Shown here: positions 7,510 through 22,886 of the stretch, one piece after another
Layout of the letters: every line of letters starts with the position of its first letter
How positions within the stretch are numbered: position 1 is the first letter of the stretch
NCBI GenBank assembly: GCA_015501075.1
Contig: JADNYJ010000074.1
Span: 62,001 to 126,000, forward strand
DNA length: 64,000 nucleotides
Direction: 5' to 3'
Source of the DNA: Gymnopilus junonius
Taxonomy: Eukaryota > Basidiomycota > Agaricomycetes > Agaricales > Galerinaceae
Translations under genes and position numbers: made by a program
The notes under the pieces: generated by a model
What the model was told of the DNA's origin: nothing
The model's database searches: none
Seen by the model: only the letters and a program-made list of their open reading frames with translations

Positions 7510-9324
7510 TCACGCCAGTCTATTGACTGAGTTCTGCCGATGGACAGTAACCACGATGGCACCACCAGGAATACCAAGTATCCTGGGCCCTTGCATCTCG
7601 GGATGCGCAGGCTGCTCCGACACTGAGGTATCATCAACGTCCTCGGGCACACTAGGTACAATGGGCGTATGTGACCTGGGAGTCGAGGTCGTCGTCAGAA
7701 TGGTTGGAGCTGAAGAAAAATGGCGAGGATAGCGTCGTGGTGGAGGCGGCAGGCTTTGTAGTACCACTACATCGGGTTCGTGACGTGGCGTCGATGACGG
7801 TGACGATGGCATGGGAGGAGGAGGGTAATATGAGATCATGGAGACTGCATCACTGTCATCGAGTTCATGAATAGACGGCTGTCGTCCGGTGTTGTCTCTT
7901 GTTGGGTCAATGACAAAACCAATTTCAGGGTGAAAAGATTGGTGAGAGGGTAAGGCATAGTAAGATGGAACGTCGTCTCTGGCGTATGAGGATTCAGCGT
8001 CATTGCTAGTTTCTTCCGACTTGGACATTTTGTGAGAGTACCCAATAGGGCTTTGAGTCAAGGTGGCGGTGGATTGGGTGAGATGTGATTTGGTACTGCG
8101 CGGCGTTGTAGCGCTGAGCTCGTGAGATGATGGCGAGGAAGATGTCATGTTGAGTTTGAGGAGGTTCAGCGAGCGAGGGAGCCGACTGAAGTAAGGCAAA
8201 GGGTTTAGATACGAGTGAGAGCAGGAGAACGCGATGACAAACCTGCTAGAGGAAGAGCCACCGAGCAAGCTTCCTTTCTCTCCTTTCTCCGAGTTCCGGA
8301 GAATATGCTTCCTGAACATGGTCCATATCTTCCTGTATTCCTTTCTGGCCTCTTCACCAAAGCCGAAGAACGCAAAGAAGATGAGGCTAGAAGCTGGGAG
8401 CGCCCACCAAAGCAGAATCATGGTCTTAATGATCCATGGAGGGATTTCAAACGCAGGGAAAAGACCAACACGCGAAAAATTGCTATGGACATCGTCCCAG
8501 TTCGTCCATGGCCTTAGACCGCCCGTAACGTTGGACCAGAGGTTGTACGCAGTAAGTGAGGTACCCCAAATCATTTCCGTCAATGCCATGGCGATGAGCC
8601 GGAGGTATCTGTTGGTGTTGAGTGCCGAGTTGGAATTTTGGAGATGGGCTGCGAATGTAAGCCGACGGCGGATGAAGTTGTGCAGGGCAAGGGCACCGAA
8701 AATGAAAGTGAGGACAGAGAACAGGAGCTGAGGGAACCAGACGAGGAAAACTGCAGGGATGGAGATGTAGATTGCTGCTTGGCAACCAAAGTTTTCGAAA
8801 ATATCGTAGCGATGGCCTTGGACGACGTAATCTGTAAGGGGTAGAGGAGACGGACATCAAATCAGAGACCTATCAAAGGGGAAAATACTTACGCAAAGCC
8901 ATAAAAATCATCGGGACGACGAAGCACATAATACTCTCAAAAATCATACGCCGTCTTCGGTCGGCAATGTCATATGAAACTTTCCGGGATGATGAGACCA
9001 TCTCTAAGTGCTTGCAAATGCAAAGGGTGGCCAGAGGCAAAGCATAAGAAGCGCCCACAACGATCTTAGTAGCTGAAAAAATCTTTCAAAAAAGTTCGAG
9101 AGTTAAGGAATGGGCTACACACTGATATCACACCAGACAGGAATCGGGTTGTTGACATTGCCTGCCCAGATGATGGTGTTGACACCGTAGATTACATTGA
9201 CCACAAAAAGCCAGAGCATCAGCGCAATAGTGGCAATATTGCGCGCCCTCCAATGCCACGGAAGAGGAATGATAACGAGAGCAGCGGAGATAAAAGCAAA
9301 TATGGGAAGTTCAGGATACTGCAT
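7510..9324 (-). CDS. STE3: STE3-type pheromone receptor 1
   Basis: Seven-helix receptor for lipidated mating peptides, expected in the plasma membrane and coupled to a G protein and MAP kinase cascade. Exons 9123-9324, 8893-9072, 8243-8831 and 7510-8185 join in frame to 548 residues. Landmarks are PLPWHW after helix 1, IIWAGNVN, VWCDIS at the first intron, GHRYDIFENFG, RYLRLIAMALTE in the third loop and FFAFFGFGEEARK after helix 7. A Ser/Pro-rich cytoplasmic tail of more than 200 residues follows. The second exon is 180 bases, as in receptors 3 and 5. The intron that splits the next part in receptors 2, 3 and 5 is absent here. The last intron (8186-8242) is 57 bases, a multiple of three, so retaining it would keep frame. 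Its closest relative here is receptor 5. Three ACAATGG-type sites lie upstream. Confidence 0.95.
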
Positions 9325-9443
9325 GGCGGCTAGGAAGAGAAAGAGAACGACGAAGAGGGCGACAGAAGGGAAAGTATGGGTCGCATGAGAATTCGTGCGT
9401 TATATCCATCTTCCGTTTCTTCTTTTTGGGTCCAATATGGTCG

Positions 9444-9499
9444 ACAATGGGAGGTCGTAAGTGGTCCACTGTGCAGGACAATGGGCCCTGAACCATTGT
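9444..9499. promoter_or_regulatory. HMG-type pheromone response sites upstream of receptor 1
   Basis: Three exact copies of ACAATGG or its complement lie at 9444-9450, 9478-9484 and 9493-9499, which is 120-175 bases upstream of the receptor 1 start. The core fits the (A/T)(A/T)CAA(A/T)G preference of HMG-box factors such as Prf1 and Mat2. Binding is inferred. Confidence 0.6.
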
Positions 9500-20764: not shown

Positions 20765-20950
20765 CTACGCTATCATGCAGAACCAAGACGGCCCGCTAAC
20801 GTCGCCACGGTGCTCGAAGTCTGCCAGAGACTCCAGCTCTTCGTAAGAGTCCATGGATGTGCTTGTCGGAATTAAATCCTCTATCGACGTTGTGGTTGTG
20901 TTGTCTGTGGAGAAGAGGGCGGTGATATCAATAGAGTCGAATGAATCCAT
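20765..20950 (-). CDS. Lipopeptide mating pheromone precursor 4 (CMIA)
   Basis: A 61-residue intron-free precursor starting MDSFDSIDIT and ending GPSWFC followed by MIA. The charged site E-H-R precedes a predicted mature peptide GDVSGPSWFC. It is the sister of pheromone 2 in both its start and its last six mature residues, but differs in the four residues before them, the part expected to carry specificity. A CCATTGT site lies 181 bases upstream. In-frame methionines upstream (to 21154) extend the open frame but would not give the usual acidic MD start. Confidence 0.92.
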   Translation of the reverse strand: MDSFDSIDITALFSTDNTTTTSIEDLIPTSTSMDSYEELESLADFEHRGDVSGPSWFCMIA

Positions 20951-21443
20951 GACGGTTAGATTTAATGCAGTGATGAGCTTTGCTTGCGAAGGTACTGAGT
21001 GCAGCGATAACGACTCGATCTTTAGGCGAGCATGCTCTTGACTCCGCTGCTTTATAGAAGACTCCCAACAATAAGTTTTGGGCAGCGTTGTTCCCCAAAT
21101 TAGGCTGTCAATAGACAATGCGCTTGGAGACCATTGTTGTGCTGATGTGAACACGGGTACGGTTCAAATGTAGCGGCAGTTCTGGATTATCGGAAGGATG
21201 GACAGCAGAAGGACGAGACGTTAAGCATTATTATAATAAACATTGGGAAGTCTGTAGCGTCTTAGTCTGCTATAATACATGTGTTTGGAACTATGCGAAA
21301 GAGGAATAATAACAAAGGCCAAAAATAGATGGCTGCGCCTAGCGCGCTGGGTGCAGACGTAATTTTACGAAAGAGGATGATCAATAAGTTATTCCGAAAA
21401 TGCCTTTCAAAGGAGAATTGACTTGGGAGCCCATATAAAAAGG
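20951..21443. other. Intergenic space, pheromone 4 to end of receptor 5
   Basis: Apart from the CCATTGT at 21131 it holds a minus-strand frame (21262-21447) ending CIIAD, which is not a CaaX box. No gene is claimed. Confidence 0.4.
21131..21137 (-). promoter_or_regulatory. HMG-type site upstream of pheromone 4
   Basis: Exact CCATTGT, 181 bases upstream of the pheromone 4 start, with a near-match AGACAATGC just before it. Confidence 0.5.
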
Positions 21444-22886
21444 TCAATGATGGGAAGTTGAGCAGTAGCTGGAGATGGATTTTGTCTCGTTAATAGATTC
21501 GACGTCTTTCGATTTCAAGTAGGTATGGAAACCCTCCGGCGTAGAAGGCGAATAGCAAGTCGGGGACGTTGCGGTAGGAGATGGCGGAGAACACCAATCG
21601 TAATTATTGGGCGTGGAGGGTGTTAGCACTGATAGAGTTGCCTCGGATTTCGTGGGTGTAAGGTTTGTTTTGGGTTTGCTAATGAAAGAGAGCTTGATAC
21701 CGCCATCGCTTTTATGCACGCTGCAAAATCAAGTTAGCAAGGTATAGCAATCATATGACTATAAAGCCTTACTAGGAGGGAAGTGATCCAGTCTTTGACT
21801 TGGTTGAAGACTCTGAAACTCGGAAGATGACCCGCTTGATCCATGCGGAGCAGGCACTGTACTCTTTCATGGCATCACGGCCGAAGGCAAAGAAGATAAA
21901 GAAGAGGAAGGTCGACACCGGAACCGCCCACCATAACAGATAGGTAAAGAGCAAATCCTGCTGAGGAATAAAGATAGTTGGGAAGACGACCACGCGCGAA
22001 AAGTTAAAATGGACATCTGAGAAACTGATCCACGGGCGCAGCCCATCTCTCATAGTGAACCACATATTGAAAGCTGTAACAGCGATACCCCAGAACATCT
22101 GAACAAGAGACATGGCCATCAGGCGGAAATAGCGGGACGGGGTCAACGCAGAGTTGCTCTGCAAATGCCTTGCGAAGGTGATTCGGCGAATCCAGAAATT
22201 CCTGAAGGCCAGAGCTGCATCCTTTCAGTCAAAGGACCTTAATATGATTGTGGTGTTTGCGGCTTACCAGATAAAACAAAGGAGCCTAATGAAAAGAATA
22301 GTGGCGGCACCCAAAGGAGGAAGATGGACGGAATTGAGACGTAGGTGTTTGCTCGACACCCGAAGTCTTCAATAATATCGATTCGATGACCTTGGATGAT
22401 ATAGTCTACGAAAAGAGGTCAGACTGGGAGAGGAATAAAAGGATCAAAACATACGCAAGGCCATGTAAATCATAGGAACACCGAAGCATAAGAGAGCGTC
22501 GATGTATTGTCTTCGCCGCTTCAGTGTATGACTGGTCGAAACATTGCGAACAGACGAAACTCGTTCAAGATGAATGCAGAGGCAAAACACGGAAGCCGGA
22601 AGGGCCACATTGGCGCCTATAATAATTTTGGAGCCTATTAAAACAGTCAGCGAAGTCGACAGAAGACAGTGGAACCAAACGACTCACTGATGTCGCACCA
22701 TACGAGGTCGACTACGTTGACGTTACCCGCCCAAATTATGGTGTTGACCCCATTGATAATATTCGAAACAAAAAGCCACAGAGCAATAGATATTGTTGGA
22801 ATGGTACCGGATCGCCAATGCCATGGAAGAGGTGCTAAACTGAGGGCGGCTGAAACGAAGGACACGATGGGGAGTTCGAGGTGCAT
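21444..22886 (-). CDS. STE3: STE3-type pheromone receptor 5
   Basis: Exons 22688-22886, 22455-22634, 22268-22405, 21773-22214 and 21444-21720 join in frame to 411 residues. Landmarks are APLPWHWR, NTIIWAGNVN, VWCDIS, LCIHLERVSS, YIIQGHRIDIIEDFG, RYFRLMAMSLVQMFWG and FFAFGRDAMKEY after helix 7. A tail of about 100 residues follows, shorter than in receptors 1 and 3. Exon lengths 180 and 138 are shared with receptor 3, and 138 and 442 with receptor 2, so this gene keeps what looks like the ancestral intron set. Its sequence is closest to receptor 1. It marks the right end of the receptor/pheromone block, with ACAATGG 145 bases upstream. Confidence 0.95.

What the first reader, a model, noticed from the sequence alone, without database searches (positions are those of the whole stretch)
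7510..22886. B mating-type locus with five intact STE3 receptors and four pheromone genes
Five receptor genes and four CaaX precursor genes lie within about 15 kb. Each receptor, spliced by eye, keeps frame over all its exons (548, 418, 570, 464 and 411 residues). The receptors fall into pairs 1/5 and 2/4 plus a divergent receptor 3, which suggests two or three sub-loci, possibly in mirror order. The exact haplotype may be undescribed.
Basis: partly seen in the sequence, partly recalled or inferred. Interest (0 to 1): 0.9.

Follow-up and report, generated by a model that had tools for sequence, protein, structure and literature searches.

The report
Mushroom B mating-type pheromone receptor locus
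This is the stretch of a rustgill mushroom's genome that holds its mating pheromones and their receptors; comparing it with the copy in the partner nucleus suggests that only two of the five receptors set the mating type, while the others are older, shared or decaying relatives.

Summary
The contig is Gymnopilus junonius C712. The receptors are not identical, but only part of the cluster behaves like mating type. R2 with P1 (R2 66.7% protein identity) and the P2-P4/R5 interval (unalignable; R5 absent from C314) form two divergence peaks, read here as alpha and beta sub-loci. R4 (90.5%) and R1 (93.4%) are conserved. R3 is a pseudogene in the other nucleus. R3 and R4 lie on one contig in many Agaricales, like the known non-mating receptors beside B loci. 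A sixth receptor lies on another contig. The layout (five linked receptors plus one elsewhere) is published for Agrocybe chaxingu. So this is a new haplotype pair of a known kind. The odd points are a partner haplotype without any beta receptor and R3 decaying in one nucleus. 'Five mating receptors' and 'mirror order' are not supported.

The parts
7510..9324 (-). R1: STE3-type receptor, 548 aa, exons 9324-9123, 9072-8893, 8831-8243, 8185-7510; conserved between haplotypes, probably not the specificity gene
   Evidence: identical to public P0159; 93.4% to its C314 allele, dS 0.17
10353..10553 (-). P1: CaaX pheromone precursor, 66 aa, ends YGFCVVA; alpha sub-locus
   Evidence: C314 counterpart ends YGFCAIA (24 of 58 aligned positions identical); below the Pfam cut-off
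10963..12488 (+). R2: STE3-type receptor, 418 aa, exons 10963-11173, 11228-11340, 11394-11460, 11515-11652, 11703-12144, 12203-12488; proposed alpha specificity receptor
   Evidence: allele in C314 66.7% identical with saturated dS
13292..15221 (+). R3: divergent STE3-type receptor, 570 aa, exons 13292-13490, 13550-13729, 13783-13920, 13971-14376, 14432-15221; intact here, pseudogene in C314
   Evidence: identical to public P0121
16540..18039 (+). R4: STE3-type receptor, 464 aa, exons 16540-16624, 16683-16805, 16853-18039; conserved, probably non-mating
   Evidence: 90.5% to the C314 allele, dN/dS 0.12
18588..18785 (-). P2: CaaX pheromone precursor, 65 aa, ends GPSWFCIII; beta sub-locus
   Evidence: C314 counterpart ends GPSWFCIVA
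19661..19819 (-). P3: CaaX pheromone precursor, 52 aa (longer in-frame start at 19963), ends YGGYCTIA; beta sub-locus
   Evidence: below the Pfam cut-off
20765..20950 (-). P4: CaaX pheromone precursor, 61 aa, ends GPSWFCMIA; beta sub-locus
21444..22886 (-). R5: STE3-type receptor, 411 aa, exons 22886-22688, 22634-22455, 22405-22268, 22214-21773, 21720-21444; proposed beta specificity receptor, absent from the C314 haplotype
   Evidence: no counterpart in C314 or elsewhere in the genome; tree place among lineages that cut across species

Best explanation
The interval is the B (pheromone/receptor) mating-type locus of one nucleus of a dikaryotic Gymnopilus junonius. Two parts set the specificity: an alpha sub-locus (P1 with R2) and a beta sub-locus (P2-P4 with R5). 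Each nucleus is expected to secrete farnesylated peptides that do not activate its own receptors but do activate the receptors of a nucleus with other alleles; the activated STE3 receptor then drives nuclear migration and clamp-cell fusion. R4 and R3, and probably R1, are B-receptor-like genes that travel with the locus without setting specificity; a sixth such gene lies on another contig. Shown here: gene content, frames, CaaX ends, allelic divergence, absence of R5 and decay of R3 in the other haplotype. Inferred: secretion, farnesylation, non-self activation, and which pheromone acts on which receptor.
For: Five full STE3 domains and four CaaX genes in 15.4 kb. A second contig, C314, is collinear with flanks of 93-100% identity but two peaks of divergence: 9.3-13.3 kb (P1, R2; 55-76%) and 18.2-24.4 kb (P2-P4, R5; unalignable), with 89-95% in between over the 3' end of R3 and most of R4. 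The homeodomain locus is also present as two diverged copies (C112, C458), as expected of a dikaryon. R2 alleles differ within the species (79.0% over the first 300 aa) about as much as each differs from G. dilepis (77.0%, 72.7%). R5 lies in a lineage with Pholiota molesta, Galerina and Agrocybe salicacicola receptors while Pholiota conissans, Flammula and Cyclocybe aegerita receptors lie in the Rcb2.42 lineage; holding the seven together is rejected (p-AU 1.5e-6). Close published parallels: Agrocybe chaxingu has five linked receptors, two conserved (96.6%, 99.4%) and three variable between compatible nuclei, plus one elsewhere (99.8%); Trichaptum has two conserved and two variable receptors, only the variable ones assigned to mating.
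Against: Only two haplotypes were compared and no mating or expression data exist here. R1 belongs to the clade that holds a Coprinopsis cinerea receptor (O74284) and Pleurotus receptors labelled mating-type, so R1 may be a third mating receptor for which these two nuclei share an allele. The tree groups tested were chosen after seeing the tree, and the R5 lineages may be paralogues lost at random (Galerina has two of them on one scaffold) rather than alleles. Whether G. junonius is tetrapolar was not found.
Confidence: 0.75

Rival explanations
1. Three mating sub-loci as in Coprinopsis: R1, R2 and R5 are all specificity receptors, and the two nuclei here happen to share the R1 allele. Only R3 and R4 are non-mating.
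For: R1 groups with C. cinerea O74284 and with Pleurotus djamor PDSTE3.3 and P. ostreatus 'B mating type pheromone receptor'. R1 exon 1 is much more diverged between haplotypes (10 of 67 residues, dS 0.65) than the rest of the gene. A published A. bisporus tree names only two groups of non-mating receptors near the PR locus.
Against: R1 alleles are 93.4% identical with dN/dS 0.19 and 0.11 in exon 1, the 15 changes in the first 127 residues being mostly conservative; G. junonius R1 alleles are monophyletic against G. dilepis (99/85) and the R1 rows of the family look species-ordered. No pheromone gene lies on the far side of R1; P1 lies in the block that diverges with R2.
Confidence: 0.2
2. Former mating locus: the species is bipolar, controlled by the homeodomain locus, and this PR locus no longer sets mating type; the missing R5 and broken R3 in C314 are signs of decay.
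For: R5 absent and R3 broken in C314, one pheromone degenerate and one without a clear intact precursor there. Pholiota nameko, a related genus, is bipolar (passages).
Against: R2 and P1 are intact in both haplotypes with divergence far above the flanks, which a locus free of balancing selection should not keep.
Confidence: 0.08
3. C314 is not an allele but a mis-assembled or paralogous copy, and R5 is missing only for that reason.
For: The assembly is fragmented (898 contigs, 58.0 Mb); C314 is only 30.9 kb.
Against: C314 spans the locus with collinear flanks on both sides (about 9.9 kb at 97.2% on one side), holds no N, and no other R5-like sequence turned up in the genome search. The two-copy homeodomain locus fits a dikaryon.
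Confidence: 0.07

Closest known systems
Agrocybe chaxingu MatB (PMC11433599, section 3.3 read)
   Same: Five linked receptor genes and a sixth on another chromosome; two linked receptors nearly invariant between compatible nuclei, the sixth 99.78%; CaaX genes in between.
   Different: There three pheromone genes and five receptors are reported in both nuclei; here four pheromone genes in one haplotype, and the other haplotype lacks R5 and has R3 broken.
Schizophyllum commune B locus with brl1-brl4 (PMC8161036, passages)
   Same: Two specificity receptors, three linked receptor-like genes and one unlinked; the run of 113/67/138-nt exons reported there is also found in R2 (11228-11340, 11394-11460, 11515-11652).
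   Different: One-to-one orthology with brl1-brl4 was not tested: no S. commune brl sequences were in the set (only S. amplum, in the R3 clade and beside R4).
Coprinopsis cinerea B locus and the non-mating genes CcSTE3-2151 and CcSTE-2153 (PMC8305134, section 3.6 read)
   Same: Two conserved non-mating receptor groups beside the mating locus; C. cinerea has an R3-clade and an R4-clade protein on one contig (P0152, P0016).
   Different: C. cinerea has three mating sub-groups; only two divergence peaks are seen here. That P0152 and P0016 are those two named genes is inferred.
Trichaptum MATB (PMC8970355, passages)
   Same: Conserved, species-ordered receptors (STE3.1, STE3.3) beside variable ones with trans-species lineages (STE3.2, STE3.4).
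   Different: Four receptors and two pheromone genes; 179 specimens were collected there against one dikaryon here.

Membership tests
Agaricomycete B (PR) mating-type locus | STE3-type seven-helix receptor genes | tested here: met
   Five of five over the PF02076 cut-off
Agaricomycete B (PR) mating-type locus | CaaX lipopeptide precursor genes close to the receptors | tested here: met
   Four, against 0.57 expected; two of four pass Pfam's cut-off
Agaricomycete B (PR) mating-type locus | Specificity receptors and pheromones highly divergent between haplotypes inside conserved flanks | tested here: met
   Met for P1/R2 and the P2-R5 interval; not for R1 and R4
Agaricomycete B (PR) mating-type locus | Trans-species lineages of the specificity receptors | tested here: inconclusive
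   R5: same-family receptors are split over lineages (p-AU 1.5e-6), but paralogy is not excluded; R2: alleles and G. dilepis about equally distant, no wider R2 search made
Agaricomycete B (PR) mating-type locus | Co-segregation with B mating type | not testable with these tools
   No crosses or progeny data
Non-mating B-receptor-like genes (for R1, R3, R4) | Conserved between compatible nuclei | tested here: met
   Met for R4 (90.5%) and R1 (93.4%); not met for R3, 78.6% in DNA and broken in C314
Non-mating B-receptor-like genes (for R1, R3, R4) | Orthologous across species, linked to the B locus | tested here: met
   17 of the 38 proteins found with R3 have a protein from the R4 list on a contig of the same length; R1 and R4 rows look species-ordered by eye
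Non-mating B-receptor-like genes (for R1, R3, R4) | No effect on mating specificity | not testable with these tools
   Needs deletion or transformation

The most novel reading that the evidence does not exclude
The two nuclei of this dikaryon are asymmetric at the beta sub-locus. The window haplotype both sends (P2-P4) and receives (R5); the C314 haplotype has at least one intact beta pheromone (P2') but no beta receptor, so it is a send-only haplotype that can receive only through R2. R5 would be a presence/absence specificity gene, and R3 is being lost haplotype by haplotype.
Probability: 0.3. Interest if true: 0.6.

Novelty: new member of a known kind. Interest (0 to 1): 0.38.

Why it matters
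Searches for Gymnopilus with pheromone receptor and mating and with tetrapolar found no description of this locus. Having both haplotypes from one dikaryon makes it possible to tell specificity receptors from passengers without crosses, and it exposes a haplotype with pheromone genes but no matching receptor. That can be tested directly in yeast or by crossing, and bears on how sub-loci are gained and lost in mushrooms with thousands of mating types.

Tried and rejected
Rejected: recent pairwise duplication of R1/R5 and R2/R4 with mirrored order; the receptors fall in old separate clades. Rejected: R5 merely degenerate in C314; tblastn of eight receptor models against C314 16350-21000 gave nothing better than E 0.086, while the same search in the window's own interval found R5 (E 1e-128 with R5 itself, 8e-64 with R1). 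Results against my reading: R1 shares a clade with receptors labelled mating-type; two of four pheromones miss the Pfam cut-off; the bootstrap of the 99-row tree had not settled; 'species-ordered' for R1 and R4 is by eye.
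Full report
What is there. The window is bases 62001-126000 of contig C712 of a 58.0-Mb, 898-contig assembly. A public R4 protein on a contig of the same length (184,605) names it Gymnopilus junonius (P0001), and the assembly is presumably that of strain AH 44721, JADNYJ000000000 (passage in PMC8480192). Between 7510 and 22886 lie, in order, R1(-), P1(-), R2(+), R3(+), R4(+), P2(-), P3(-), P4(-), R5(-). The four CaaX genes exceed a Markov expectation of 0.57 +/- 0.79; P1 and P3 score below the Pfam cut-off.

The other haplotype. A whole-genome STE3 search found matches only on C712, C314, C590 and C850 (only its best candidates are scored). C314 (30,863 bases, no N) is collinear with window 1841-34344. 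Identity is 91-100% in most flank bins and 97.2% over the 9.9-kb right block, falls to 82-85% at the start of R1, 55-76% from 9.3 to 13.3 kb (P1, R2), recovers to 78-81% over most of R3 and 89-95% from 15.0 to 17.7 kb (R3 3' end and most of R4), drops to 73-77% in the R4 tail, is lost from 18.2 to 24.4 kb, and returns to 93-95% beyond, with one bin of 85% at 25.2 kb. The homeodomain locus is likewise present twice, C112 and C458, collinear and diverged (72.7-82.8% in the middle). So the assembly holds both nuclei of a dikaryon, at least at these two loci.

Allele by allele: R1 93.4% protein identity, dS 0.17; R2 66.7%, dS saturated; R4 90.5%, dS 0.41, dN/dS 0.12. R3 in C314 has three in-register stops (R3 codons 52, 187 and 308), two 1-nt deletions and one 14-nt deletion by alignment, so it is a pseudogene, although all four intron borders are still GT..AG. 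R5 has no counterpart: eight receptor models against C314 16350-21000 gave nothing better than E 0.086, while the same search in the window finds R5 easily. C314 pheromones: P1' (8908-8732, CAIA) and P2' (19069-18863, CIVA) are intact; a P3-like end (YGGYCNIA, near 20013) has an MD-type start only in another frame; a GPSWF-type copy near 17985 has a stop in frame and no CaaX cysteine.

Receptor phylogeny. In a 99-row tree (bootstrap not settled), R3 falls in a clade of 21 rows (100/100), and R1, R4 and the sixth receptor in clades that, by eye, follow species. R5 falls in a lineage with Pholiota molesta, Galerina, Agrocybe salicacicola, Cyathus, Pleurotus and Mucidula, while P. conissans, Flammula and Cyclocybe aegerita fall with Rcb2.42. 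In a 35-row tree, holding the seven dark-spored R5-type rows together is rejected (p-AU 1.5e-6), as are the two Pholiota rows (2.7e-65) and the three Agrocybe/Cyclocybe rows (3.2e-4). The groups were named after the first tree was seen, and differential loss of paralogues would look the same: Galerina has two lineages on one scaffold. R2 groups only with G. dilepis R2, beside R4. G. dilepis carries R2 and R3 fused in one public model (P0122), so their adjacency is older than the two species.

Linkage of R3 and R4. Of the 38 proteins found with R3, 17 have a protein of the R4 list (120 shown of 1080) on a contig of identical length, taken as the same contig: G. junonius, Hebeloma, Flammula, Collybia, Psilocybe cubensis, Agrocybe pediades, Pholiota conissans, Lyophyllum shimeji, Crucibulum, Tricholomella, Panaeolus, Pleurotus djamor, Galerina, a Termitomyces, Amanita thiersii, Coprinopsis cinerea, Schizophyllum amplum. 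An eighteenth match (P0158) was left out because it lies near R2/R4 in the quick tree. For the other 20 the list gives no contig, a different contig or no R4 partner. The S. amplum partner (P0120) lies beside the R4 clade, not in it.

Interpretation. The two divergence peaks with a better conserved stretch between them point to two sub-loci, alpha (P1/R2) and beta (P2-P4/R5). R3 and R4 match the two non-mating receptor groups described beside PR loci in several Agaricomycetes (PMC8305134, section read); with R1 and the sixth receptor on C590 (allele fragment on C850, 99.7-99.9% identical DNA over that region) the set matches the three linked and one unlinked receptor-like genes of Schizophyllum (passages) and the five-plus-one of Agrocybe chaxingu (section read). 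Agrocybe cylindracea also has five receptors and three pheromones in its B locus (passages). R1 is the least certain: its clade includes receptors labelled mating-type.

Verdict. A real B locus, correctly read in structure, over-read in function. New haplotypes of a known kind. The most interesting unexcluded point is a beta sub-locus without a receptor in one of two compatible nuclei.

Noticed in passing
window 4386-5800: A roughly 1.4-kb insertion with inverted end repeats of about 395 bp (86% identical) and a short flanking duplication (TCGGAC), absent from the C314 haplotype; looks like a DNA-transposon insertion. The genome DNA search found no further copy (best candidates only).
   Followed up: partly
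L009 (C314) 2311-3738: C314 carries about 1.4 kb between stretches matching window 4328 and 4330 that has no match in the window apart from its last bases; a haplotype-specific insertion.
   Followed up: partly
L013 (C590 119935-121044) and L015 (C850 59-660): A sixth STE3 receptor outside the window's contig, nearest to Crassisporium and Crepidotus receptors, with a near-identical partial copy on C850.
   Followed up: partly
L023-L026 (C458, C112): The homeodomain (A) locus is present as two diverged copies, a ready marker that the assembly holds both nuclei.
   Followed up: partly
window 16853-18039 and 21444-22634: The public R4 model has one intron more (448 aa) and the public R5 model stops early (319 aa) compared with the frames here.
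   Followed up: no
window 7510-8185 and 14432-15221: The far C-terminal ends of R1 (IVVTVHRQNSV) and R3 (IHMTIVQETA) are kept in the C. cinerea relatives P0166 and P0152 although the tails before them vary; a possible docking motif, not tested.
   Followed up: no
window 44078-45070: ORF with a BTB/POZ domain (E 8.6e-7).
   Followed up: no
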